25,234 nucleotides of DNA from a virus. This document shows positions 136-23,643 of the stretch, one piece after another. The stretch lies in the IMG/VR virus record IMGVR_UViG_3300028569_000155, positions 1 to 25,234 of that record; one strand, written 5' to 3'. The notes beneath the pieces were generated by a model. That model was not told the DNA's origin. It did not search any database and saw only the letters and a program-made list of their open reading frames with translations. A program made the translations under genes and the position numbers. The stretch's first letter is position 1; each line of letters starts with the position of its first letter.

Positions 136-1494
136 TTATGTATTTAATTCAAAAAATTTATTACTTAACATTTGTCTATCTAAATCATCAAAGTTACCAT
201 TTGATGGCTTTTTTGGTGCAACGGTATCTGCTTCTTCATCGTAATGATCTCCAATTGAAATGTGACCATTTGATGTGTTAACATCTACTTGAAAAGTTAA
301 TCCATCCATTCCATATCTGTTTTTCATAATATGAAGTCTTCCGGTTCCGTTAACTTTATCTTCTTTTTTTCTTGATAACGACATGGATAAGTCGGTAATC
401 ATCATTTTATCATAACTTCCTGCGGCTTTATCACCCTCAATAACGTCATCTTTAGCTCCTGCGCGGTTTACTTGAGAAACTGACCAAATTGGTATATTAA
501 GTTCTCGAGCTAATCCTTTCGTGCTGGTATAAATATCATCAATTTCTCCCTTACGGTCAACATTTCGTTTTTTTGTTGAAAGTAAATCAATATAATCTAT
601 TAATATAAGATCAGGTTGAATTCCTAAATCAATTACCTTTTTTATGTGAGATTCTATAGTATGTATTGTAGTTTTTCCCATAGGGTATTCACGGATAATC
701 AATTCTCCTGGTAATTCAGCGGTTAATGTTTCTACTTCTGCTTTATGTTTTTCTAATTGGTCTACTGGGGTTCCTGTAAAGAAAGCATCATATCTTCGTC
801 CTGTATAGGATTCACTTAATTCTAATGTATAGTGAATAACATTGTAACCCATTTTAACAGCGTGTCCACCTAAAGCAACCAAACACCATGATTTACCACC
901 TCCAGGATTACCAAAAATTAATCCTAAATCTCCATTACCTAAACCACCTTGAACCAATTCATTAACTTGCTCCCAAGGAGTAGGTACAATAGTTCTATGA
1001 TCTTCTCGGTAACGTGATTCAGTATCTTTTTTATATTCGTGTCCAATGTTTTTATCTTGTCCAGCTTTCATTGCTGATTCAATCATATATTTGATTGAGT
1101 CATAATCACCGGCTTTTAATAGATCTACACTGTTTAGTAGTGCTTTTTTTAGCTGTTGATTTTTACAAAACGTTGAAAATTCTAGTTGAACATATTCTAA
1201 ATCTTCTAAATCTGCTCTATATGCTTCACGTAATTGTTCTTTAACAGACACTTTAAGTACCTCGTTATCGAGTTTTTTCATTTCAACTTTTAAAATATCC
1301 ATGGATATAACCGTATGATAACTTTCGTAATATTGAATGATTTGATTTATAACCCATTTATGTGCAGGGTTTGAAAAATATTCATCACTTAGTACATCGT
1401 TTATATTTTGTAAAAACTCTTTATGTGTTAGTAAAGAAGAGATTACTTTCATTTGAAACGATGGACCGTATTCGTCAATTGAAGAGAGGGTCAA
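136..1494 (-). CDS. Replicative DNA helicase, T4 gp41/DnaB type
   Basis: This 452-residue protein is a hexameric 5'-3' replicative helicase that would unwind DNA ahead of the phage polymerase. The N-terminal domain (about 1-150) is helical and begins with a gp41-like segment (SIDEYGPSFQMKVISSLLT). The RecA-like motor follows, with Walker A GNPGGGKS at 195-202, a conserved glutamate in YTLELSE near 225, Walker B LILIDYIDLL ending near 305, the sensor SQVNR at 340-344 and a likely arginine finger in MKNRYG near 393. T4 gp41 is 475 residues, so the length fits. The start is odd: the frame opens at TTG (1492-1494) and the next ATG (residue 15) would cut into the conserved N-terminus, so TTG is preferred. 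The gene sits directly downstream of the homing endonuclease gene, which may have replaced the original start region. Confidence 0.93.
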   Translation of the reverse strand: MTLSSIDEYGPSFQMKVISSLLTHKEFLQNINDVLSDEYFSNPAHKWVINQIIQYYESYHTVISMDILKVEMKKLDNEVLKVSVKEQLREAYRADLEDLEYVQLEFSTFCKNQQLKKALLNSVDLLKAGDYDSIKYMIESAMKAGQDKNIGHEYKKDTESRYREDHRTIVPTPWEQVNELVQGGLGNGDLGLIFGNPGGGKSWCLVALGGHAVKMGYNVIHYTLELSESYTGRRYDAFFTGTPVDQLEKHKAEVETLTAELPGELIIREYPMGKTTIHTIESHIKKVIDLGIQPDLILIDYIDLLSTKKRNVDRKGEIDDIYTSTKGLARELNIPIWSVSQVNRAGAKDDVIEGDKAAGSYDKMMITDLSMSLSRKKEDKVNGTGRLHIMKNRYGMDGLTFQVDVNTSNGHISIGDHYDEEADTVAPKKPSNGNFDDLDRQMLSNKFFELNT

Positions 1495-1546: not shown

Positions 1547-2170
1547 TTATTCTTTGTATTTCCAAATATAACCTCCAGAAGTTTTAGTAGTTCCTAAAAG
1601 AGCATTCTGGATTTTTAAATTTGTAATGTCTTTTGCTTCTTGGGCAGATTTGTATTCTCTAACAATATTACCTTCTAGATCATATTGTATAACTGGTTTA
1701 AAGGTAGATTCTCTATTTCTAGTTTTAAGACTTTCTGAAATCCATGGGCTAATTCCTCTTGGTTTTCCCTTATCTGATCTAACTTTTGTTTGGTTTCTAG
1801 TTTTACCTGTTCTTCCTTTACTCATATTATTTCTTGCTTCTGTAGATTTTGGTTTACCTAAACTAGACATTTTAATTTTTAATTTTGTTTCATCCGAAAG
1901 TCCACTATTTCCAAAAGCTTTATTTGTTCTATTCATAAACATCGGGTTGTTTTCGACATCAAACTTTTGCAACCAAAATTCTTCTCGTTTAGCTAAATTT
2001 TCTTTACAATCACAATATTCAAGTATATTTTTAACTAAATTAATTTTACCTTCTGTTTTAATTATTTGTTTAATTTCAGCTCCACTTCCAAAATAACTAG
2101 GACTATTTGATACATCTTTTCCTATATATTTTTTACCCGTGGGGATATGAGTTGTTAAATAAATGACCAT
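1547..2170 (-). CDS. Free-standing GIY-YIG homing endonuclease (Seg-like)
   Basis: This is a mobile endonuclease gene of about 207 residues, unlike its replication neighbours. From the ATG at 2168-2170 the N-terminus reads MVIYLTTHIPTGKKYIGKD, giving the degenerate VIY...YIG pair of the GIY-YIG nuclease fold, followed by YFGSG and by REEFWL, which carries the likely metal-binding glutamate. The middle holds a NUMOD3-like DNA-binding stretch (LSDETKLKIKMSSLGKPKS) and a basic linker. The C-terminus (VIQYDLEGN, then AQEAKDIT and GGYIWKYKE) matches the NUMOD1 helix-turn-helix module. Such enzymes cut an allele lacking the gene and spread by repair. The frame is open to a TTG at 2200, but the ATG gives the normal family start. 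It is wedged between the nuclease and helicase genes with no sign that either is split. Confidence 0.88.
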   Translation of the reverse strand: MVIYLTTHIPTGKKYIGKDVSNSPSYFGSGAEIKQIIKTEGKINLVKNILEYCDCKENLAKREEFWLQKFDVENNPMFMNRTNKAFGNSGLSDETKLKIKMSSLGKPKSTEARNNMSKGRTGKTRNQTKVRSDKGKPRGISPWISESLKTRNRESTFKPVIQYDLEGNIVREYKSAQEAKDITNLKIQNALLGTTKTSGGYIWKYKE

Positions 2171-2215
2171 ATGTTGTTTTATTATACATATTAACAACAA
2201 TTGGAAATGTCATTT

Positions 2216-3247
2216 TTATTGTTGCTTTTCCAACAAATCTTTAAAAACATCGCGAACCCAATAATCTGTATTTCTTATTAAGTTTCCGATTTGATCTTCA
2301 TTACACATTTCTACAAATGTTTCTGGAAGGTAATTTAGTGGTGTGTTTTCGACAAACTTATCGATAAACATTTTATCTTTATCATCCATCATTGGGTTGG
2401 ATAAATCCATTACCCTATATTTATCTTCTAGCAATGGTATATCATGTAATACTCTTGCATAGATTATATGTTCTTTCAATTTAGCTTCAGCTATATCTAA
2501 TAAATCATCAAATGATAGGTCTCTTGTTGCAATTTCAGGGAATCGTTTAAATAAACCCTTTGATCCTAATCCTTTTATACCAGTTACACCATCTGAATTA
2601 TCACCCATTAGCAATTTGTATAATAGGAAATTGTGTGGAGTAACGTTAAATTTTTCTTTTACTGTATCTGTAGTATAATATTCTTTTTCAATTGGTCTGT
2701 AGATGATAACTTTCTCGCTAACTAACTGCAGGTAATCTTTATCGCTAGATACTATGAATACTCTATCTTCGGGTTGTGTAGGCAATGTACTACTTAAATA
2801 TGCGATAATATCATCTGCTTCTACCCTAGGTAACGATACTGTTTTAACAGGTAAAGTTTTTAAGTACTGGATTATACGAACAATTTGGTCTACTTTAGAA
2901 TCGTCTTCATCTTCTAGATTATCAAATAATTCATGTTTAGTAATTCGAGATACATTTCTATTTGATTTGTATTCAGGGATTATATTTTTCCTATTATTAG
3001 AAGAACCTACACCATCAAATACCATATAGACTTGGGTTGGTTGAAGTGTTCTAATTAAAGCACCTAAAGATCGAAAAAATCCTCCTAAACCCCCTATATG
3101 GACTCCATTTGAATTTACTGCATTTATAGCACTAAAGTTTCTAAAGAATAGATTGAGTCCATCTATTAGCAGGTAGCGTTCTGATTGTGGCAATTCATCT
3201 CCATGTTCTTGTACAGTATCTAGGAGGTTTAAGAGGTCTTTTTTCAT
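2216..3247 (-). CDS. 5'-3' exonuclease / RNase H, T4 Rnh-type (FEN family)
   Basis: This 343-residue flap-endonuclease-family protein probably removes RNA primers from lagging-strand fragments, as T4 Rnh does. Acidic metal ligands are visible: D in YLLIDGLNLFFR (about 29), D in VFDG (78), the cluster VEADD (142-146), SSDKDY (D169, D171) and GDNSD (D216, D219). A helix-3-turn-helix DNA-binding segment GVTGIKGLGSKG follows. The C-terminal third is family-like but less recognisable. I chose the ATG at 3245-3247; the frame extends six codons further only by using a TTG. The gene begins one base after the stop of the small in-frame ORF that trails uvsX (TAATATG), which suggests translational coupling. 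Identity as a FEN-family nuclease is secure; RNase H versus other flap activity is inferred from context. Confidence 0.92.
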   Translation of the reverse strand: MKKDLLNLLDTVQEHGDELPQSERYLLIDGLNLFFRNFSAINAVNSNGVHIGGLGGFFRSLGALIRTLQPTQVYMVFDGVGSSNNRKNIIPEYKSNRNVSRITKHELFDNLEDEDDSKVDQIVRIIQYLKTLPVKTVSLPRVEADDIIAYLSSTLPTQPEDRVFIVSSDKDYLQLVSEKVIIYRPIEKEYYTTDTVKEKFNVTPHNFLLYKLLMGDNSDGVTGIKGLGSKGLFKRFPEIATRDLSFDDLLDIAEAKLKEHIIYARVLHDIPLLEDKYRVMDLSNPMMDDKDKMFIDKFVENTPLNYLPETFVEMCNEDQIGNLIRNTDYWVRDVFKDLLEKQQ

Positions 3248-3248
3248 A

Positions 3249-3350
3249 TTAATCTTCGTTATCAAATAAATCTGGTTTCTTTGGTTTGTTTCTATTTCCT
3301 ACATGATTAATATACCCAAAGGATTTTGCTATATCACTGGTAAAGATCAC
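3249..3350 (-). CDS. Possible 33-codon ORF or uvsX C-terminal extension
   Basis: Immediately after the uvsX stop (TAA at 3354-3356) the same reading frame stays open for 34 codons to a TAA at 3249-3251. The peptide would read (L)VIFTSDIAKSFGYINHVG, then NRNKPKKPDLFDNED. It could start at the GTG at 3348-3350. It ends in an acidic DLFDNED tail that echoes the DLFDPEEVD end of UvsX. Its stop lies one base before the nuclease ATG, so it fills the gap exactly. It could be a small separate gene, the former C-terminus of a longer UvsX cut off by a stop, or chance. There is no ATG and no known family that I recognise. Confidence 0.35.
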   Translation of the reverse strand: MIFTSDIAKSFGYINHVGNRNKPKKPDLFDNED

Positions 3351-3353
3351 AAG

Positions 3354-4445
3354 TTAATCAACTTCCTCAGGATCAAAAAGATCATTAGTGGTAGCAACCT
3401 CATTCCATTCAGAATTGTCTTCTTGTACAGAATATGTACCTTGTCCTAAAATATCAGCCCATTCACTTACATGAGCATCTTTATATTTCTTAATAACATT
3501 CGGATCATCTTTAATGAAACCATGTACTGTTGATACAATAGTTCCCATTGTAGTAATTCCATTGATGTGGTTTTTGTCACAGGCAATTTTTGTACGCAAT
3601 GCAAATTCAACTTTCTTCTTATCCTTAACAGCGTTAATTTTAGAAGTACCTGCATTTGTAACGTTACCAAATGTCAAACATAATGAAACATCATAATAAA
3701 ATGTATCTCCACCTTTGTTTGTCATTCTAGGTTGTGACATAGGAGTTAAAGCCGGAGCAACACCTACTTTATTCACAATAAATAAACTATTCGTGTATTT
3801 TGAGCTTTCCTTACGGGACATTACAATCTGTTGATTAATAAAGTTTCCGAATTGAGTTGCGATAGCTCCTGCATTCCACATTGGATTGTTTTTCCCTTGA
3901 TTAATAGACATATCACATGGAATTGAACCAACTGAATCCCAAATGAATAATAGATCGTATGGTAAATTACCTTTCTTCTGTTCAGTTAATAAATCAATAA
4001 TAAATGCTGCAATATCTTCAATTGAATTTAATGAGCTTCTATCTCGATATATAAAGAAACCATTTTGATCTATAATTTCACCTGTTTCTTCATCAACTAC
4101 ATCATCCATTTGAAACCCCATTGTTTTCCAGTGGTTCCAATCATGTTTCATCTCTGTAATAATCAATACAGGTAATATTCCCATTTTTTGAGCATTAACT
4201 GCTATTTCAATGGTCATAGTAGATTTTCCTGTATTACTTTTCCCTCTAACCATTGAATTATGGCCCATAGGGATACCAGGAATGGACAAAGCTTCTTGCA
4301 AAGCTGGTGAAAATGGTATCCACTTTTGTTCTTTGAATTTAACATTTGATGCTAAACCCTTATTTGCTTTAAATTTATCTAAACTAAAGGCGGATTTCAG
4401 TTCTTTGTCCGCCGCCTCTGTTAGCGATTTTCTTATTTTGGCCAT
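3354..4445 (-). CDS. uvsX: UvsX/RecA-family recombinase
   Basis: This 363-residue protein would form the presynaptic filament on single-stranded DNA and drive strand exchange for recombination-dependent replication and repair. It has the RecA core: Walker A RGKSNTGKST at 67-76, a likely catalytic glutamate in IITEMKHDW near 98, Walker B LLFIWDS at 165-171, and a loop L2-like segment MTNKGGDTFYYDVS at 241-254. The C-terminus is acidic (NDLFDPEEVD), as is common for recombinases whose tails control DNA access. Its length is close to T4 UvsX (391 residues). It starts 13 nt after the SSB stop, and the partner gp32-like protein is the preceding gene, matching the functional pairing known in T4. 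No uvsY-like mediator was recognised in the window. Confidence 0.92.
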   Translation of the reverse strand: MAKIRKSLTEAADKELKSAFSLDKFKANKGLASNVKFKEQKWIPFSPALQEALSIPGIPMGHNSMVRGKSNTGKSTMTIEIAVNAQKMGILPVLIITEMKHDWNHWKTMGFQMDDVVDEETGEIIDQNGFFIYRDRSSLNSIEDIAAFIIDLLTEQKKGNLPYDLLFIWDSVGSIPCDMSINQGKNNPMWNAGAIATQFGNFINQQIVMSRKESSKYTNSLFIVNKVGVAPALTPMSQPRMTNKGGDTFYYDVSLCLTFGNVTNAGTSKINAVKDKKKVEFALRTKIACDKNHINGITTMGTIVSTVHGFIKDDPNVIKKYKDAHVSEWADILGQGTYSVQEDNSEWNEVATTNDLFDPEEVD

Positions 4446-4458
4446 AACTTATTTTAAA

Positions 4459-5280
4459 TTAAAAGGGCATGTCGTCGTCTTCTTCAAATAAAGCATCAAA
4501 ATTATCTGCTTTAGATTTTTTAGCCGCCGGTTTGGTTGATAGACTGTAATTTGATTGTGTTTTTTCTTCTTCTTTAAATTTTCCATCAGCAGGAAATTCT
4601 TCCTCTTTTTCATCTTCAGGATTTAACCATTCTGCAAGTGCGGATTTGATTTCATCAAATGGAAGCATTTTGTAAGATTCTTTTGGATTAACTTGATCCT
4701 CTAACCATAATTCACAATCCTTATCATTTTCAGATAATGGAGAAGTTTTCATTGATGGTGTAATTGTAGTTTTGTTATAAACTGTTCCTGTAGATTCAGG
4801 TCCAACTGTAACTAACTTAATGTCACGTCCCATCATGATGTCTGTGAAATCACCTACTTCTTCATCAGCAGCCATTTGCAAAAATGCTTCGAAAATTTCT
4901 TTACCAAATTCCCACAATTGAACACCTTCACTTTCTTCACCACGTACAATTACAGGAGCGAAAATACGGTTTTTAGGGTCTAATTTCTTAGCCAATCTCC
5001 AATTTTCCTTGTCATTTGTACCACGAAGTTGCTTTGCGAATTCAGCAATTGGATCCTTTTCATTCCAGTTTAATGGAGAAGCAATTACTTTTTTACTTCC
5101 GATACCGTAGTAAAATTTCATTTCCGTGAATGGAAATTCTTTGTTGTATTTGAACGGAACAACACGTACCGTTTGTTTACCAATCTGCGGTTTAAATCGC
5201 TTTGTTTGGTTGTTAGCGCCCCCACTTGTAGGTTTGGACTGCATAGACTCAAGTTTTTTCTTGATTGCATCTAGATTCAT
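4459..5280 (-). CDS. gp32-like single-stranded DNA-binding protein
   Basis: This 273-residue protein would coat single-stranded DNA at the fork and load partners. The layout is that of T4 gp32: a basic N-terminus (MNLDAIKKKLESMQSKP), an OB-type core whose segment EGVQLWEFGKEIFEAF resembles the gp32 GKVFKYRFGKKIW region, and a long acidic tail. Two differences stand out. The zinc-binding Cys/His set of T4 gp32 is missing: the equivalent stretch (YYGIGSKKVIASPLNWN) has no cysteine, and the only Cys in the protein is in DCELWLED. The last residues are EEDDDMPF, nearly the same as the DDDIPF tail of bacterial SSBs. It lies directly upstream of uvsX. Assignment rests on core resemblance, tail and position. 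Confidence 0.85.
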   Translation of the reverse strand: MNLDAIKKKLESMQSKPTSGGANNQTKRFKPQIGKQTVRVVPFKYNKEFPFTEMKFYYGIGSKKVIASPLNWNEKDPIAEFAKQLRGTNDKENWRLAKKLDPKNRIFAPVIVRGEESEGVQLWEFGKEIFEAFLQMAADEEVGDFTDIMMGRDIKLVTVGPESTGTVYNKTTITPSMKTSPLSENDKDCELWLEDQVNPKESYKMLPFDEIKSALAEWLNPEDEKEEEFPADGKFKEEEKTQSNYSLSTKPAAKKSKADNFDALFEEDDDMPF

Positions 5281-5337: not shown

Positions 5338-5799
5338 CTATAATTCAATGATCTTGAAGATCTTTGTATTAAGTTGCTTAATTTCATTGTGTTGAGTTAA
5401 CAATATACAATTTCTGTAATGTTGCCAATTCACTGGGTAATTTGTGTCAACTGCTCCACCATTCAATTTTTTAATTAATTCATTTAATGCATTGATTGTA
5501 TAGAGTGTGTTGGAATCTTTTTTTCTATGTACTAAAATAGTATTGTCAGGAATATCGTTTACATTTCCTTGATCTACATTATATGTAACAACATATTCGT
5601 TATTACTTTTAATATGTAGTACAAACATTTTATTATACATTATGGTATAACGTGATGAAAGTCCACTTATTAATGATTCTAAATCATTCAACGAAGAAAA
5701 AGTGCAAAATAGCCTGTTATTCATCAATAGTGAATCAAGTGTGATATTATAATCATATTGATCATACATATTGGTGGGTTGTTCAAGAGTGGTATACAT
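5338..5799 (-). CDS. Conserved-looking protein of unknown function in the replication cluster
   Basis: This 153-residue protein does not match any family I can name. It begins three bases after the polymerase stop, so it is probably translated together with it, and 57 nt separate it from the SSB gene. The sequence is a compact mixed alpha/beta protein with alternating hydrophobic strands (MFVLHIKSNNEYVVTYNVD; NTILVHRKKD) and a helical middle (INALNELIKKLNGG). It has no signal peptide, membrane segment or obvious catalytic motif. The tight spacing suggests a polymerase accessory or regulatory role, but that is inference only. The start is the first ATG; a second Met at residue 11 is an alternative. 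Confidence 0.75.
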   Translation of the reverse strand: MYTTLEQPTNMYDQYDYNITLDSLLMNNRLFCTFSSLNDLESLISGLSSRYTIMYNKMFVLHIKSNNEYVVTYNVDQGNVNDIPDNTILVHRKKDSNTLYTINALNELIKKLNGGAVDTNYPVNWQHYRNCILLTQHNEIKQLNTKIFKIIEL

Positions 5800-5802
5800 A
5801 AC

Positions 5803-7053
5803 TTATTTTATATTATTATAATTGGTACCTGTTTTTACTTTAAATTGCAGATTTTTATCGTTTATTACTTTTGCTATTTGTTCTAGCAATTCTTTCTCGT
5901 TATCATCTACATCAAACAAAAAACTATCATACACATATAAGACGAGTTTTGTATTTTTACCTCGCAATATTTTAAATATTTCATACAATATACAAACATT
6001 ATTTGCGGTCTCCAAGTTTTGTAACACGTAATTTAAAAGCTTTTGTGGATTCATGTTTTCCAGTTCACTTTTTAAAAATCTATGATTTGAAATAGGGCAT
6101 GTGATGTATCCATTGTGTTGAAATTCATCCCACAAATTATCTGTATATGCTATTACTTTTCGAAAGAATTCGAGTTCCTGATATTCTTTCCAAACTCCTC
6201 CATAGAGCTGTTGAAACGTGATTTCTTTTGCTTTGGAGTAATCCACTCCATACATTTTAGCAAAACTACCATGAATATCACTACTGTCAAAAGTATAATT
6301 GAGTAAATTAGCGAGCAGGGTAGGATGATAAGCACTAATATCCATTTCAATAAAAATATCATTGCGCGGTATAAAACATTCTCTTTCTCCATTGTTTTTG
6401 TCTAAAGCTGAAAAATTAATTCCTCCAAATGCGTTGGAGGGTCTTGTTGTTAGTGTATTTAAATTATATTGCGTGTATATAAACTCGTTTGCCTCTTTAT
6501 CGAAGTACTGCTCGAATAATGTTTTGTCCACCTTTATACCCGCTCGTTCGAGTTGATTAAACACCAATGCTGCTTTATTGTAAAACGGGTTTAACCTTGT
6601 ATCATCAAAATTAGCATAGTTTTGTTCACATACCTCATAGTGTTTTACAATCGGTACAATAGTGTTTAAATTTTGTATATTAGGGTACCTATTGTATAAC
6701 TGCATGTGAGCTTGGGTCAACTGCTGTATATACGTATGTGGGGAGGGTGAGGGTTGGTAACAATGTTTAATAGGGAAATAATGTAAAAATTCTTTTTTAT
6801 CTCTTACATAAATATTTTCTATACTATTTAATACTCTTTCTACTATCTCTAAATCAAAGTTTATTGTTTCGCTATGGTTTATAGCAATGATATATCCTTT
6901 GTTGTCGTTTTCAAAACGCAAGTATATTGAACATACCTCATTTTCAACAGGATGAAGATTATGTGAACATGGAATGATATCAACATAAGCTACTTGATGC
7001 TTGATGCGACAAATGGTTTCTATATGTTCAATATCTTCTATAAGCCAATACAT
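5803..7053 (-). CDS. Compact family A DNA polymerase
   Basis: This 416-residue protein carries the palm and fingers motifs of DNA polymerase I. VFNQLERAGIKVD (164-176) matches the start of the pol domain. TRPSNAFGGINFSAL (203-217) matches the template-binding region. Motif A is IEMDISAYHPTLL with D238. DIHGSFAKMYGV (259-270) precedes motif B, where K276, F280, Y284 and G285 align with E. coli K758, F762, Y766 and G767. Motif C is LYVYDSFLFD with D376. The two catalytic aspartates are kept, but the E. coli Glu710 equivalent is His243 and the usual HDE of motif C is YDS. The region between residues 176 and 203 is very short, so the thumb is minimal. The N-terminal 150 residues look like a degenerate exonuclease domain (VAYVDIIP) with no clear DxE. 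T4 itself uses a family B polymerase. Confidence 0.88.
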   Translation of the reverse strand: MYWLIEDIEHIETICRIKHQVAYVDIIPCSHNLHPVENEVCSIYLRFENDNKGYIIAINHSETINFDLEIVERVLNSIENIYVRDKKEFLHYFPIKHCYQPSPSPHTYIQQLTQAHMQLYNRYPNIQNLNTIVPIVKHYEVCEQNYANFDDTRLNPFYNKAALVFNQLERAGIKVDKTLFEQYFDKEANEFIYTQYNLNTLTTRPSNAFGGINFSALDKNNGERECFIPRNDIFIEMDISAYHPTLLANLLNYTFDSSDIHGSFAKMYGVDYSKAKEITFQQLYGGVWKEYQELEFFRKVIAYTDNLWDEFQHNGYITCPISNHRFLKSELENMNPQKLLNYVLQNLETANNVCILYEIFKILRGKNTKLVLYVYDSFLFDVDDNEKELLEQIAKVINDKNLQFKVKTGTNYNNIK

Positions 7054-7867: not shown

Positions 7868-8860
7868 TTAGTATTGAGTTGCATTTGGGTAATCTGCTGG
7901 GGATCCATCCTCTGCTCGGAATTTGGTATTTATTTTGTGGTCTGTTTCTCCTATACTCCAATGCCACCATTCATTAGAGACTCTTCTTAATCCAGCATCA
8001 TATAAAGATTTATATAATAATCCATGAGAGAGTATGTCATCTTTTATTTTAACTTTAACCCCTTGAAGATTAGTATATGATCCTCCTTGATCTAAATCTA
8101 CCGCTTGTCCTGCTACATGGTATCCACTACAAGGATTTGCTTTTACAGGACCTTTTTTCCCTCCAGCTACCCATGCCTCATATGCCTGTTTTTGAAATGC
8201 AAATGATCTTAAACTATCTCCTATAAGGGCACGCCCATTCATTCCATTTTTTATTATGGTTATACTTCTAATTTTAGTTAAAAAATTATCATATGCACTT
8301 TCTAATTTAGCTATATAATGTTCATTCCCTTTAACAAAACCACCATAAGCATTATTAATTTTAGATGTTACCATAGCGCCTGCTAATTTTCCAGGGAGAT
8401 CAGGACATCCAGGACCATTACCTAGTTTAGAAGTAGTTACGGGATTGTTATCTTCAGCAGGTTTTACAGGGGCAATAGCCGCTTCTTTTTGAACTTCAAA
8501 CTTTAGGCTTCCTGTTATTTTACTAACTGTGTCTGTTCTTGGGATTAAAGTTAAATTTAATGAGGTTTCCCAATCTCCTTGATTTAATTTATGGTCTACT
8601 CCCGTTACTATAAATCTTAAAGTATTAGAATATCCAATAGGAAGAAAACTTGTATCTATTGTGAGCCCATTGTAAATTTTAATTCCAGAAAGCCCATCCA
8701 TTGTAAAGCCGATTTTAAATGGGATAAACCCAATAGAACCTCCAGAATCTTTAATTTTATTATTAAAGTCATTTTCAGAAGCAGCCACCATTGCTTTGAA
8801 ATATTCAGTAGCTACTTTTAAATTTTCTCCAATAAGTGAATCTGTAAATTTTCCAGGCAT
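7868..8860 (-). CDS. Tail-associated murein peptidase: hub-type N-terminus plus M15/VanY-like domain
   Basis: This 330-residue protein has two parts. Residues 1-132 are almost identical to the N-terminus of the preceding gene and resemble the closing domain of baseplate hub proteins (FIVTGVDHKLNQGDWET at 83-99). Residues about 205-310 form a D-Ala-D-Ala carboxypeptidase-like (LAS/M15) domain: SLRSFAFQ at 216-223, SGYHVAGQAVD at 245-255 giving zinc ligands H248 and D255, and EWWHW at 297-301 giving the catalytic E297 and ligand H300. The enzyme would cut peptide cross-links in the cell wall when the tail contacts the cell. The linker (130-150) is Pro/Asn-rich. No signal peptide is present, consistent with delivery on the virion. 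A free endolysin role is possible but less likely given the hub domain. Confidence 0.88.
   Translation of the reverse strand: MPGKFTDSLIGENLKVATEYFKAMVAASENDFNNKIKDSGGSIGFIPFKIGFTMDGLSGIKIYNGLTIDTSFLPIGYSNTLRFIVTGVDHKLNQGDWETSLNLTLIPRTDTVSKITGSLKFEVQKEAAIAPVKPAEDNNPVTTSKLGNGPGCPDLPGKLAGAMVTSKINNAYGGFVKGNEHYIAKLESAYDNFLTKIRSITIIKNGMNGRALIGDSLRSFAFQKQAYEAWVAGGKKGPVKANPCSGYHVAGQAVDLDQGGSYTNLQGVKVKIKDDILSHGLLYKSLYDAGLRRVSNEWWHWSIGETDHKINTKFRAEDGSPADYPNATQY
8465..8860 (-). repeat. Duplicated hub-type domain, copy 1
   Basis: The first 132 codons of the M15 peptidase gene repeat the first 126 codons of the neighbouring lysozyme-like gene (copy 2 at 9554-9931). By eye the two proteins agree at most positions from MPGKFTDSLIGENLKVATEY to KEAA, and the DNA is also very similar. 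The main difference is a short insertion (SENDFNNKIK against a shorter run) near residue 30. This marks a fairly recent tandem duplication. Confidence 0.92.
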
Positions 8861-8872
8861 ATTAAAGTTTAT

Positions 8873-9931
8873 TTATTGCCATTTAGCAGGTACAACTCCC
8901 ATATCCCATTTAGAAACTAATATTGCTAATTCTAAACCATCATCCCAACCAACTAATCCTGCCCTTAATGCTTTTATAACGGTTGGGTAATTTCCATTGG
9001 TAAGAGTTTTTATGGTTGCTAAGACTCCATCATTCCAAGTTTTATAAGATTGTACCCCTACCGATGTGCAATTGGTAGATGGAGTACCAACAGTAATCTT
9101 ATGTTTAGAGTTCCATCCATTATAAGCGCAATTTGCTCCTTCAGCTCTTCTCCAATTTTTCATCCATAATAAATTACCGGTAGTAAGTGGGGCTCCAAGG
9201 CCTGTTAAAACTTGTTTAAAATATAAAGTATTTTCATTTTCAGTAAATTTTGATCCATTAGCATGGGACATTAATTTTCCTTTATTACTATTATTTGAAG
9301 ATAATCCATCCTTATAAACTTCTATTACATATCCATTAGGTCTTATACCTTGTTCAAACTCTAAAAGCATTTTTCTTCTGGCTGGGTTAAATGATGGTTT
9401 TGGTTTGTTAGTAAGTGGGTCTATACCTATAAAATTGTTAGTGTTTGATGGATCAGGATAGTTTGGTCCTGGTACCCATGCCATAAAGTCTCCTCTATTA
9501 CCTCCATATTTGTTGTTAGATTTGGTTACAGGATTAACAGGGTCAACATGGTTTACAGGAGAAACAGCTGCTTCTTTTTGAACTTTAAACTTTAGGCTTC
9601 CTGTTATTTTACTAATTGTATCTGTTTTAGGGATTAAAGTTGTATTTAAAGTTGTTTCCCAATCTCCTTGGTTTAATTTGTGATCTACTCCTGTTACTAT
9701 AAATCTTAAAGTGTTAGAATATCCTATGGGCATAAAACTTGTATCTACTGTAAGTGAATTGTAGATTTTAATTCCAGAAAGTCCATCCATCGTAAAACTA
9801 ATTTTAAAGGGTATAAACCCAATAGAACCTCCAGAGTTTTTATTTTTGGGGTCTGCTACCATTGCTTTAAAGTATTCAGTAGCTACTTTTAAATTTTCTC
9901 CAATAAGTGAATCTGTAAATTTTCCAGGCAT
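8873..9931 (-). CDS. Tail-associated lysozyme-like protein: hub-type N-terminus plus glycosidase-like domain
   Basis: This 352-residue protein shares residues 1-126 with the M15 protein that follows it. After a Pro/Asn linker, residues about 180-225 form a small unassigned region. Residues about 233-330 resemble a lysozyme-like domain found in phage tail and tape-measure proteins: LGAPLTTGNLLWMKNWRRAEG (246-265), with E264 as the candidate general acid, then a CAYNGWN segment, TNCTSVGVQSYKTWNDG (286-302) and IKTLTNGNYPTVIKAL (307-322). It would cleave the glycan strands of peptidoglycan during infection. The stop lies 12 nt before the next start, so the two hydrolases are probably co-expressed. 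The glycosidase call is from remembered family pattern and is less sure than the M15 call in its sister. Confidence 0.75.
   Translation of the reverse strand: MPGKFTDSLIGENLKVATEYFKAMVADPKNKNSGGSIGFIPFKISFTMDGLSGIKIYNSLTVDTSFMPIGYSNTLRFIVTGVDHKLNQGDWETTLNTTLIPKTDTISKITGSLKFKVQKEAAVSPVNHVDPVNPVTKSNNKYGGNRGDFMAWVPGPNYPDPSNTNNFIGIDPLTNKPKPSFNPARRKMLLEFEQGIRPNGYVIEVYKDGLSSNNSNKGKLMSHANGSKFTENENTLYFKQVLTGLGAPLTTGNLLWMKNWRRAEGANCAYNGWNSKHKITVGTPSTNCTSVGVQSYKTWNDGVLATIKTLTNGNYPTVIKALRAGLVGWDDGLELAILVSKWDMGVVPAKWQ
9554..9931 (-). repeat. Duplicated hub-type domain, copy 2
   Basis: First 126 codons of the lysozyme-like gene, the partner of copy 1 at 8465-8860. Both copies end at the same point, just after KEAA, where the proteins switch to unrelated linkers and catalytic domains. 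Confidence 0.92.
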
Positions 9932-20132: not shown

Positions 20133-21836
20133 TTATCCAGGAAATTCAGCTCCTGTTGGTTGCAAGATGAAATCTAATGAAATAAATTCAGCGGTGCGTG
20201 TTGGTTGAATATAAATTTGTCCTACAAGTTGATTTTGATCAATTACTGCGGGGCCATTATTAGAATCATCCATAATAACTTTAAAAGCATATAATCCTTG
20301 TTTTTGTTGAATTCTTTCTAAAAATGGTGTTACTCTAGTTATAAATGAACCTCTTGTTGACAATGTATTTTGTTCAAATACTATAGTATCAGAAATTTGA
20401 CGAATATAATTTTTTAATTCAATCATCAAACGTCTTACGTTTACACGATCAAGAGCAGATTGAGCTTTTTGTAATGTTTTTTGTCCAAATACTACAACAC
20501 CTTGTCTTGGCAATGTAGCTATTGGGTTTATATTATTAGCATATAGTGTATCTCTTTGTCCTTGAGTTAATTTGTATTGAGCTTGTAATACTGTATATAA
20601 ACCACCTCTATTAATACCTGCAGGTGCAAACCATGGAGCCGATACTTTATCATTGAAAGCATATACACCTGGGATTACAGTTGAAGCTGGTACCCATACT
20701 TGTTTTCCTGTTGATGGGTCTGAAATGCGAACCCAAGGCCAATATGAAGCGGCATATGAAGTATCTCTTGATTGAGCTTGTGTGATTACATCTCCTACAG
20801 TACTATTATAATCTACTAAATCAAATACAAATAAATTATCTCCTCTAGAGATAGTATTTGTAATAACGCTAGTGATTTGTGATGTATGATTATCATTTGT
20901 TAGTCCTGGGGTAAATAAAACATTGAATTGGTATGCTTCTCTATTTCCAAGTAAAGCAATCATTTTATTATAATCACCACCTATTAAACCTTGAGTATTA
21001 GATGAATTTATAGCATCATAAAAATTAATTGGAGATGTTGATAATACTGTTCCTGTGGCACCATCAAATGAACCACTTCCATTTATTGGAATTGATGCTG
21101 TATATGCACTTACTGCAACCCCATTAGCATCAAAATAGTTTGGTGTATTATAATTAACCGATTTAACATATACGTATCTGGATTTATTTGTAAAACTTCC
21201 TGATAATTGCATTTGGGTATTAGCCTGGTCGTAATTTAATACTTGATCACCAATTACTTTAGAAATGTAACGGCTTGAGTTAGGATCTAAAGTAACACTA
21301 TTAAAAGCTTCAAGTACTACTTTATTATTTGTAATATCATTTCCTCTTCTAATTAATACATTAAATGTACCTGATCCTGTATTTGAATTTGTAATTTCAA
21401 ATCTAACATTATTTACAGATCCTGAAGCTAATGATCCAGAGGCATCTAAAGAACTTGAACTGTTCATAATTATTCCTTCGGAAATAGTTCCAAGTGAAAA
21501 TGATGATGATGTAAAGTAGTTTGTAGCTGATGTGCTTGTTGCTTCACTAAAAGATCCACTTGCTACTCTAGCTACTAATAATGAAGTACCACCATAATTA
21601 AAATAATTATATGCTGCAATTGAAGTAAGATATGAATATGAATTACCACCACTTATGAAAGTATCTCCAAATAACATTGTAAAATCAGAATATGAAGTTA
21701 CTAAGGTAGGAGTTTCATATGGGCCTTTTACTGTTGGGCCTATGATAGCTGCTCCCGCTTGTACCGGTTGACCCGTTAAAAACGTATTATCTATCTCACT
21801 AATTGCTACTCCTGGTGAAGTTGTAAAATTTGCCAT
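20133..21836 (-). CDS. Tail sheath protein, gp18-like, copy B
   Basis: This 567-residue protein is a contractile sheath subunit. The N-terminus (SPGVAISEIDNTFLTGQPVQ, then AGAAIIGPTVKG) and the C-terminal domain (LDRVNVRRLMIELKNYIRQI, then the closing RTAEFISLDFILQP) are sheath hallmarks and are closely shared with the preceding gene. It is shorter than T4 gp18 (659 residues). The middle (about 100-270) is Ser/Thr/Asn-rich and the most divergent part between the copies, as expected for surface-exposed sheath domains. It lies between sheath copy A and the tube gene. The motif TATTTATAAT is 11 nt before its ATG. Either copy alone could build a sheath. Confidence 0.95.
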   Translation of the reverse strand: MANFTTSPGVAISEIDNTFLTGQPVQAGAAIIGPTVKGPYETPTLVTSYSDFTMLFGDTFISGGNSYSYLTSIAAYNYFNYGGTSLLVARVASGSFSEATSTSATNYFTSSSFSLGTISEGIIMNSSSSLDASGSLASGSVNNVRFEITNSNTGSGTFNVLIRRGNDITNNKVVLEAFNSVTLDPNSSRYISKVIGDQVLNYDQANTQMQLSGSFTNKSRYVYVKSVNYNTPNYFDANGVAVSAYTASIPINGSGSFDGATGTVLSTSPINFYDAINSSNTQGLIGGDYNKMIALLGNREAYQFNVLFTPGLTNDNHTSQITSVITNTISRGDNLFVFDLVDYNSTVGDVITQAQSRDTSYAASYWPWVRISDPSTGKQVWVPASTVIPGVYAFNDKVSAPWFAPAGINRGGLYTVLQAQYKLTQGQRDTLYANNINPIATLPRQGVVVFGQKTLQKAQSALDRVNVRRLMIELKNYIRQISDTIVFEQNTLSTRGSFITRVTPFLERIQQKQGLYAFKVIMDDSNNGPAVIDQNQLVGQIYIQPTRTAEFISLDFILQPTGAEFPG

Positions 21837-21885: not shown

Positions 21886-23643
21886 TTATGGAAACGTTGC
21901 TCCCGAAGGTAATATATTAAAGTCTAATATAATAAATTCAATTGTTCTAGTAGGTTGTAAATAAATTTGTCCAATTAATTGGTTTTGATCTACTACACTA
22001 GGTGGGTTGTTTGTTTCATCTATCACTACTCTAAAAGAGGTTAACCCTTGTTGTTGTTGGACAACAAATAAATAGGGATTTATTAATGATAAAATTTCAT
22101 TTCTTGTAGCTTCGGTGTTTTGTTCAAATACAAATGAATCGGCTATTTGGGAAATATAATTTTTTAATTCAATTAATAAACGTCTTACATTTACACGATC
22201 TAAAGAGCTTCTTTTCTTTTGCAATGTTTTTTGTCCAAATACTACTACTCCGGTGTTAGGAAAAGTTGCAATTGAGTTTACATTATTTTGATATAATAAA
22301 TCCCTATTTCCTTGAGTTAATACCCTTTCAGCTTGAATTACATTAGGCATAATTCCTCTATTAATTCCTGCGGGGGCAAACCAAGGATATGCGATAGTAT
22401 CATTTTGGGCATATACTCCAGGGATCCATGTTGAGGTTGGAATCCAATTTTGTTGACCAGTTGATGGATTATTAATTTTTAACCAAGGCCAATAAGTTGC
22501 TACATATGAAGTATCAAAATTAAGAGCATTTAAGGTTACTGGGATGATATTAGAGTTGTATCCTACTATATCGATAATAGCCATTGCATCTCCTCTATTT
22601 TGGACCATTGTATTTAACTGTTGAATTACAGGGAAATGGGATGGGTAGAATGTTGAGTCTCCTATTAATCCAGGGGTAGTAATAAAATTATAATTGTAAG
22701 CATCTTTATTTGCTAATAAAGAAATAGATTCTGTATAATCATTGGCTTTTAAACCTTGAATGTTTGTATCTGAAATATTTTCATAATATGCACCGGCGGC
22801 AAATGTAGGGAGATTACTTCCTTTTCCATCCCCAAAAACTCCACTTTGTGTTGTGGGGATTGAACCGGTAAATTGGGATTTTGGTGCTCCATTATTATCA
22901 AGATAACTTGGGGTAGTTTGGTTTACTTGTTTAACACGAACATATGCTGATTTATTAGTATAACTTCCTGATAATTGAACATAATATTCACCATTATCTA
23001 CTGCTACGTTTTCTGTTTGATTTCCAATAGCTCTTTCGATGTAATTTGGGGCTAATGGATCTAATGATAAATTTGTCCAGGTTTCTAATATTGAAGGAGA
23101 TAACGTTGTATCATTTCCTTGTCGAATTAATAATGTAAATGTTCCTAAGTTAATGTTTGGGGAAGATATTTGCCATCTAAAATTATCTGCTGATCCACTT
23201 AATAAAGTTCCATTTGATCCTGTAGGACCAACGCTATTCATTATTCCTCCCTCAGCCAATGTTTCTAATATAAATACATCGGTATTATATGGAGCTCCTG
23301 CGGCATGCGATGAAGCTGAAATAAATGAGGATGATGCTGGGGTCCAAGCTGTAGTTGTGCTTCCACTTACCACACGAGTTACTAATAATGAACCTCCTCC
23401 ACTATTAAAGTAGTTAAATGCGGATAGAGATGTTAAATATGAATATGTTTGACTTCCGCTTAAAAATGTAGAACCATATTTATTTAAATAATCACTATAA
23501 GTTGTACATAATGTTGGAATACCTACTTTACCTTTAACTGTTGGGCCTATAATAGCGGCACCCGCTTGTATGGGGGATTGAGTTATAAAGGATTGATCAT
23601 TCTCTATAGATAATACACCAGGTGATACAATTGTTTCTGCCAT
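21886..23643 (-). CDS. Tail sheath protein, gp18-like, copy A
   Basis: This 585-residue protein is the first of two tandem sheath genes. The N-terminus (VSPGVLSIENDQSFITQSPI, then QAGAAIIGPTVKG) and the C-terminal domain (SLDRVNVRRLLIELKNYISQ, then RTIEFIILDFNILPSGATFP) align with copy B, as do the central YWPWLKINNPSTGQQ and WIPGVYAQND-type segments. It has its own insertion near 95-150 (a Ser/Ala-rich stretch followed by VFILETLAEGGIMNSVG) and differs mainly in the outer domain. It begins 45 nt after the small coiled-coil gene, with a copy of the repeated motif in the gap. No frameshift or early stop was seen in either copy, so both are probably expressed. Confidence 0.95.
   Translation of the reverse strand: MAETIVSPGVLSIENDQSFITQSPIQAGAAIIGPTVKGKVGIPTLCTTYSDYLNKYGSTFLSGSQTYSYLTSLSAFNYFNSGGGSLLVTRVVSGSTTTAWTPASSSFISASSHAAGAPYNTDVFILETLAEGGIMNSVGPTGSNGTLLSGSADNFRWQISSPNINLGTFTLLIRQGNDTTLSPSILETWTNLSLDPLAPNYIERAIGNQTENVAVDNGEYYVQLSGSYTNKSAYVRVKQVNQTTPSYLDNNGAPKSQFTGSIPTTQSGVFGDGKGSNLPTFAAGAYYENISDTNIQGLKANDYTESISLLANKDAYNYNFITTPGLIGDSTFYPSHFPVIQQLNTMVQNRGDAMAIIDIVGYNSNIIPVTLNALNFDTSYVATYWPWLKINNPSTGQQNWIPTSTWIPGVYAQNDTIAYPWFAPAGINRGIMPNVIQAERVLTQGNRDLLYQNNVNSIATFPNTGVVVFGQKTLQKKRSSLDRVNVRRLLIELKNYISQIADSFVFEQNTEATRNEILSLINPYLFVVQQQQGLTSFRVVIDETNNPPSVVDQNQLIGQIYLQPTRTIEFIILDFNILPSGATFP

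What the first reader, a model, noticed from the sequence alone, without database searches (positions are those of the whole stretch)
5803..7053. Minimal family A polymerase with unusual active-site residues in a T4-type replisome
In a set with gp41-, gp32-, UvsX- and Rnh-like proteins one expects a family B gp43. Instead there is a 416-residue family A protein with both catalytic aspartates (D238, D376), but with His243 at the Glu710 position, YDS for HDE in motif C, a very short thumb region (176-203) and no recognisable proofreading triad. Rhodothermus phage RM378, a far-T4 phage, is remembered to have a split family A polymerase with a separate exonuclease, so a proofreading subunit may be encoded elsewhere.
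Basis: partly seen in the sequence, partly recalled or inferred. Interest (0 to 1): 0.65.

Follow-up and report, generated by a model that had tools for sequence, protein, structure and literature searches.

The report
Accessory thumbless phage PolA (divPolA1)
This gene encodes a stripped-down second DNA polymerase, a family already described in 2024 as divPolA1, that large T4-like phages carry in addition to a normal copying enzyme; it is not a replacement for that enzyme, and its exact job is still untested.

Summary
The gene lies on the minus strand (7053->5803, 416 aa). AlphaFold2 gives a confident model (pLDDT 92.8) that matches the large fragment of bacterial Pol I over its whole length (Z 26.2, 383 of 416 residues), with a vestigial exonuclease domain and almost no thumb. 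Both catalytic Asp are kept; Glu710->His, Arg754->Tyr, His881->Tyr and loss of Glu883 are fixed or nearly fixed in 233 relatives down to 25% identity.

It does not replace gp43. Relatives 76-85% identical sit in contigs that encode a full family B gp43; the 174 kb one also has gp61 and gp44. The immuto clade has a 780-aa exonuclease-bearing PolA instead.

This is divPolA1 (Yutin et al. 2024, PMC11348598): a new member of a known kind. Added here: it always travels with an uncharacterised 153-aa protein (5338-5799) in a fixed operon p153-gp32-UvsX-FEN-DnaB; gp61 primase is in every record of 150 kb or more, so it is no primase substitute; dN/dS is 0.17. Most likely it is an accessory, non-proofreading, Pol I-like gap-filling or primer-extending polymerase. 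No biochemistry was found.

The parts
5803..7053 (-). divPolA1: 416-aa thumbless, exonuclease-dead family A DNA polymerase
6589..7053 (-). residues 1-155: vestigial 3'-5' exonuclease-like domain without conserved catalytic acids
   Evidence: AF2 model aligned to Bst from residue 300; D25/I27 variability
6445..6528 (-). residues 176-203: where the about 90-residue thumb of Pol I is missing
   Evidence: E169-R204 is 36 aa against 128 aa in E. coli Pol I; no thumb helices in the model
6316..6354 (-). motif A FIEMDISAYHPTL: catalytic D238 (= D705) and invariant H243 (= E710 steric-gate position)
6199..6240 (-). motif B YSKAKEITFQQLYG: invariant Y272 (= R754), K276 (= K758), F280 (= F762), Y284 (= Y766)
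5920..5937 (-). motif C YVYDSF: Y375, catalytic D376 (= D882), S377 (= E883; Ser or Ala in all relatives checked)
5338..5799 (-). p153: 153-aa protein of unknown function, strict partner of divPolA1, starting 3 bases after its stop
4459..5280 (-). gp32-like single-strand DNA-binding protein
   Evidence: PF08804 7.5e-12, phrog_1192
3354..4445 (-). UvsX-like recombinase
   Evidence: phrog_97 2.9e-18
2216..3265 (-). FEN-type 5'-3' exonuclease (equivalent of the Pol I N-terminal domain and of T4 Rnh)
   Evidence: PF02739 2.2e-34; NCBIfam Pol I residues 3-243, 7e-43
136..1494 (-). DnaB/gp41-like replicative helicase
   Evidence: phrog_19 2.4e-73

Best explanation
The gene encodes divPolA1, an accessory polymerase of large T4-like phages. 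It is descended from the large fragment of Pol I, has lost proofreading (the exonuclease domain is vestigial) and nearly the whole DNA-gripping thumb, but keeps the two metal-binding aspartates, the O-helix Lys/Phe/Tyr and Arg668/Gln849, so it probably still adds nucleotides. The chromosome is copied by a separate full-length replicase (gp43 family B in the window's clade). divPolA1 most likely makes short, distributive patches on gp32-coated templates: filling the gap after the operon's own FEN removes a primer, or extending UvsX- or primase-made primer ends before the replicase takes over. That is Pol I's division of labour with the FEN and polymerase parts on separate genes. p153, encoded 3 bases downstream, is probably its obligatory partner, perhaps supplying the DNA hold that the missing thumb would give. 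Shown here: fold (predicted), residue conservation, presence of the replicase in relatives, operon and partner linkage, purifying selection. Inferred: polymerase activity, gap filling, and the role of p153.
For: AF2 model pLDDT 92.8, pTM 0.90; VIA-align Z 26.2 to M. smegmatis Pol1, with Bst and Taq large fragments within about 1 Z, spanning model residues 1-416; Foldseek E 2.8e-18 to Klenow. D238, H243, Y272, K276, F280, Y284, Q345 and D376 are identical in all 233 aligned members of three clades that share about 25-36% identity, and D238, H243, K276, F280 and D376 also in 11 more divergent ones. Replicase elsewhere: PolB in G001, G002, G004, G006, G010, Mel-JY01 and LR756508 and in 7 of 10 Mel-clade contigs; full PolA in immuto and 9 of 10 immuto-clade contigs. 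It is retained while the replicase family changes. Operon divPolA1-p153-SSB-UvsX-FEN-DnaB: p153, SSB and UvsX in 78 of 78 loci with 7.5 kb downstream, FEN and DnaB in 77 each. p153 and full-length divPolA1 occur in the same 6 of 50,697 phage records. dN/dS median 0.17. A PolA with Ser at the Glu883 position (Tt72) is active, its S616A mutant has 76% activity and its E710-equivalent mutant 35% (PMC9324360).
Against: No biochemistry was found. Arg754, which contacts the triphosphate in Pol I (my knowledge), is Tyr in all members, and Glu710 is His, so activity or sugar selectivity may differ. Without a thumb, DNA binding may need a partner nobody has shown. T4 itself has a FEN (Rnh) and manages without divPolA1, so proximity of the FEN does not prove gap filling. 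Two UvsX-bearing contigs (L410, L411) have neither divPolA1 nor p153 at this place, so it may be dispensable or movable. Loci from one collection are not independent.
Confidence: 0.6

Rival explanations
1. Ribonucleotide-tolerant or primer-initiating polymerase: with the Glu710 steric gate replaced by His and a motif C reading YDS/YDA (compare HDS in T7 RNA polymerase, from memory), divPolA1 extends or makes RNA or mixed primers together with gp61, in the manner of eukaryotic Pol alpha.
For: Invariant His at the Glu710 position and never an acid at Glu883; helicase, SSB and FEN are its constant neighbours. The Glu710 position blocks ribonucleotides in Pol I (PMC9324360). The divPolA2 family was proposed as a possible RNA polymerase (PMC11348598).
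Against: gp61-type primase is present in every record of 150 kb or more, so priming is covered. F280 (= F762) and the profile favour DNA polymerases: hhalign finds Klenow at 5.8e-6 and no meaningful match to T7 RNA polymerase. His is bulky and could still exclude a 2'-OH.
Confidence: 0.2
2. Catalytically weak or dead polymerase fold kept as a scaffold that binds primer-template or p153 and coordinates gp32, UvsX and the helicase.
For: Glu710, Arg754, His881 and Glu883 all replaced; thumb missing; fixed pairing with p153.
Against: Both metal-binding Asp, the O-helix Lys/Phe/Tyr, Arg668 and Gln849 are identical in 233 members at about 25% identity, which a scaffold would not need.
Confidence: 0.12
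3. One reading: it is the phage's replicative polymerase, used instead of gp43, with a proofreading subunit elsewhere.
For: It sits in the replication operon and the window shows no other polymerase.
Against: Full-length replicases with exonuclease domains in long relatives; the window is a 25 kb fragment; the RM378 precedent is family B.
Confidence: 0.04

Closest known systems
divPolA1 (Yutin et al. 2024, PMC11348598), member Flavobacterium phage immuto gp001
   Same: Homologous over the whole length (36% identity), conserved palm residues, truncated thumb, inactivated exonuclease domain, replication genes downstream, and a regular DNA polymerase elsewhere in related genomes.
   Different: Belongs to a clade for which no cultured phage turned up here, with a family B replicase; motif C reads YDS rather than YDA. 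Otherwise the same kind.
Bacterial DNA polymerase I large fragment (Bst, Taq, M. smegmatis Pol1)
   Same: Fold over the full chain including an exonuclease-dead domain; D705, D882, K758, F762, Y766, R668 and Q849 equivalents.
   Different: About 90-residue thumb missing, E710->H, R754->Y, H881->Y, E883->S; the FEN part is a separate gene.
divPolA2 of barbaviruses (PMC11348598)
   Same: Second, divergent PolA next to a regular PolB; no canonical thumb; no exonuclease (from the paper).
   Different: Different N-terminal domain and variable gene neighbourhood, according to the paper; not compared by sequence here.
Rhodothermus phage RM378 split polymerase
   Same: Far-T4 phage; polymerase and exonuclease on separate genes.
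   Different: Family B, not family A.

Membership tests
divPolA1 (PMC11348598) | Homology to Flavobacterium phage immuto gp001 | tested here: met
   36% identity over 96% of the query, 2e-74
divPolA1 (PMC11348598) | Palm-domain catalytic residues conserved | tested here: met
   D238 and D376 invariant
divPolA1 (PMC11348598) | Thumb truncated | tested here: met
   36 aa against 128 aa between anchors; no thumb helices in the model
divPolA1 (PMC11348598) | 3'-5' exonuclease catalytic aspartates replaced | tested here: met
   No conserved acids across clades; the domain itself is retained
divPolA1 (PMC11348598) | Conserved replication genes downstream | tested here: met
   p153-SSB-UvsX-FEN-DnaB in the window and in nearly all of 78 loci
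divPolA1 (PMC11348598) | A regular DNA polymerase in the same genome | tested here: inconclusive
   The window is a 25 kb fragment; met in longer relatives
Canonical family A polymerase (Pol I) | PF00476 above curated cut-off | tested here: not met
   25.8 against 34.3 bits; the immuto homologue passes at 42.7
Canonical family A polymerase (Pol I) | Family A fold of palm and fingers | tested here: met
   Z 26.2, 383 of 416 aligned
Canonical family A polymerase (Pol I) | Glu710, Arg754 and Glu883 equivalents | tested here: not met
   His, Tyr and Ser
T4-type replicase (gp43, family B) | Family B palm domain | tested here: not met
   Only family A polymerase profiles match this protein
Nucleotide polymerase in function | Template-directed nucleotide incorporation | not testable with these tools
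   Needs purified protein

The most novel reading that the evidence does not exclude
divPolA1 and p153 form a two-component polymerase in which a separate small protein replaces the thumb in trans, with a re-purposed active site (His in place of the Glu710 steric gate) that extends RNA or recombination primers for whatever replicase (A or B, and by the 2024 paper C) the phage carries: a phage counterpart of Pol alpha.
Probability: 0.15. Interest if true: 0.75.

Novelty: new member of a known kind. Interest (0 to 1): 0.4.

Why it matters
Hundreds of environmental T4-like phage contigs keep a second, thumbless, non-proofreading polymerase and a dedicated small partner while the main replicase differs between clades. 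Knowing its job would show which replication step needs its own enzyme in these phages, and whether a polymerase can work without a thumb of its own. The residue table and the partner give a direct experimental handle.

Tried and rejected
Primase replacement: rejected as a necessity because gp61-type primase is found in all records of 150 kb or more. Split family A replicase as in RM378: rejected. Separate proofreading subunit: PF01612 was found only in the immuto full-length PolA, and the family B replicase has its own exonuclease domain. Relationship to single-subunit RNA polymerase: no meaningful profile match. Descent from the immuto full-length PolA: no profile match beyond a short stretch, so no recent duplication is visible. 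p153 function: no match in PHROGs, Pfam, NCBIfam or PDB sequences; AF2 pLDDT 79.5 with a ferredoxin/RRM-like core; best Z 7.3 is in the range of chance, and viral matches other than one uncharacterised homologue are weak. A viral-contig scan with the LR756508 copy found nothing. One paper guessed for immuto held nothing relevant. PF00476 misses many close copies of this very protein in whole-record searches, so 'no PolA' from that model excludes only canonical PolA.

Full report
What is there. The ORF at 5803-7053 lies on the minus strand and encodes 416 aa. Sequence searches give weak but consistent family A signals: phrog_17 'DNA polymerase' 3.6e-11, PF00476 6.5e-6 and below its cut-off. In the annotated phage collection it has relatives along most of its length only in four immuto records (36%), Microcystis phage Mel-JY01 (28%) and the 484 kb LR756508 (30%). 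IMG/VR holds hundreds of relatives. The window itself is a complete 25,234-base IMG/VR record, hence a fragment.

Anatomy. A 47-sequence alignment gave an AlphaFold2 model with pLDDT 92.8 and pTM 0.90. VIA-align places it on the large fragment of bacterial Pol I over its full length: Z 26.2, 383 residues, 3.5 A rmsd and 17% identity to M. smegmatis Pol1 6vdd, with Bst and Taq fragments within about 1 Z. Foldseek agrees (1kfd, E 2.8e-18). The N-terminal 155 residues thus correspond to the exonuclease domain, but the acids are gone: the first site is mostly Asp/Glu in two clades and Ile/Val in the third, the next is Ile27. Profile alignment to Klenow fixes the active site: D238/D705, H243/E710, Y272/R754, K276/K758, F280/F762, Y284/Y766, Q345/Q849, Y375/H881, D376/D882, S377/E883, R204/R668. 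From the pre-thumb Glu to Arg668 E. coli has 128 residues; the window clade has 36, immuto 42 and the Mel clade 24: the thumb is essentially absent.

Conservation. In 233 members of three clades D238, H243, Y272, K276, F280, Y284, Q345 and D376 never vary; position 375 is Tyr in all but one; position 377 is Ser or Ala. Eleven more divergent copies keep D238, H243, K276, F280 and D376. The median dN/dS within the window clade is 0.17. So the protein is under selection and its departures from Pol I are fixed family traits. Loss of Glu883 is tolerated in a characterised enzyme: Tt72 phage polymerase has Ser there, its S616A mutant keeps 76% activity, and the Glu710-equivalent mutant keeps 35% (PMC9324360). 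Arg754 to Tyr has no such precedent that I found.

Not the replicase. G001, a 173.8 kb contig with an 85% identical copy, encodes gp43 (132552-135281; phrog_262 1.6e-136; PF00136 and PF03104; motifs DFTSLYPS and SDTDS), gp61 primase (33715-34653; phrog_47 7.6e-45) and gp44 clamp loader (phrog_168 5.4e-72). PolB is also found in G002, G004, G006, G010, Mel-JY01 and LR756508 and in 7 of 10 Mel-clade contigs. Immuto and 9 of 10 immuto-clade contigs have instead a roughly 780-aa PolA and no PolB; in immuto its exonuclease domain was confirmed. Every record of 150 kb or more has a gp61-type primase.

Neighbourhood and partner. In 78 loci with at least 7.5 kb downstream, the order divPolA1-p153-SSB-UvsX-FEN-DnaB is kept across all three clades (p153, SSB, UvsX 78 of 78; FEN and DnaB 77 each), interrupted only by an occasional homing endonuclease or one small gene. 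p153 is found in exactly the same six annotated phage records as full-length divPolA1. An independent search for p153 in IMG/VR gave 53 loci; 48 have divPolA1 upstream and the other five lie within about 1.1 kb of a contig end. An independent search for UvsX gave 45 loci with enough upstream sequence among those newly fetched: 43 have both genes and two (L410, L411) have neither; in none was only one of the pair found to be missing. p153 is absent from T4, RM378 and T7. It is better conserved than divPolA1 itself (window against immuto 58% and 36%). Its model (pLDDT 79.5) shows a beta-alpha-beta-beta core with a conserved HRKK..NTxYTIN stretch; no database match is convincing.

Comparison with what is known. 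After the anatomy was worked out, the literature search led to Yutin et al. 2024 (PMC11348598), who describe divPolA1 in 14 phages (immuto and relatives, 155-190 kb) in addition to a regular polymerase of family A, B or C, with truncated thumb, inactivated exonuclease and conserved palm residues, next to replication genes. The window protein meets every feature that a fragment allows to be tested. It is a new member of that kind. Not in the parts of that paper that I read are the invariant His at Glu710 and Tyr at Arg754, the strict p153 partnership, the gp61 test and the scale of the family; its figures and supplements were not available to me.

Mechanism. Shown: predicted fold, residues, purifying selection, fixed operon and partner, replicase elsewhere in relatives. 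Inferred: it is an active, low-processivity, non-proofreading polymerase that acts on gp32-coated DNA with p153, doing Pol I-type patch synthesis after FEN or extending primers for the replicase. Its persistence through changes of replicase family, with the helicase, SSB, UvsX and FEN constant, suggests that its partners are among those constant proteins. The main rival is a role with ribonucleotides suggested by the lost Glu710; no tool here can decide that.

Noticed in passing
window 4459-5280 (-): The gp32-like protein ends in ...EEDDDMPF (G001...DEDDDLPF), resembling the C-terminal tip of bacterial SSB (DDDIPF, from memory); the immuto and Mel-JY01 homologues do not end this way. It might recruit host SSB-binding proteins.
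   Followed up: partly
window 1547-2200 (-): GIY-YIG-type homing endonuclease (phrog_314) inserted between FEN and DnaB; present in only 2 of 21 window-clade loci by this query, and elsewhere in the same operon in 5 of 26 immuto-clade loci.
   Followed up: partly
window 7868-8860 and 8873-9931 (-): Tandem genes share a nearly identical N-terminal module (MPGKFTDSLIGENLKVATEYFKAMVA...) followed by different C-terminal domains; G001 has three such genes in a row (79474-82488). Looks like a baseplate module with exchangeable ends.
   Followed up: no
window 20133-21836 and 21886-23643 (-): Two adjacent paralogous genes that look like tail sheath proteins; the same pair is present in G001 (63552-67086).
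   Followed up: no
L410 and L411: Two related contigs keep SSB-UvsX-FEN-DnaB but have unrelated small genes where divPolA1 and p153 should be: joint loss or relocation.
   Followed up: partly
G031 and G037 (Mel clade): Family B polymerase split into two ORFs of about 600 and 300 aa, the cut falling inside the polymerase domain.
   Followed up: no
L002 37898-40231 (immuto gp199): The full-length immuto PolA has HDQ instead of HDE in motif C, so loss of Glu883 is not confined to divPolA1.
   Followed up: no
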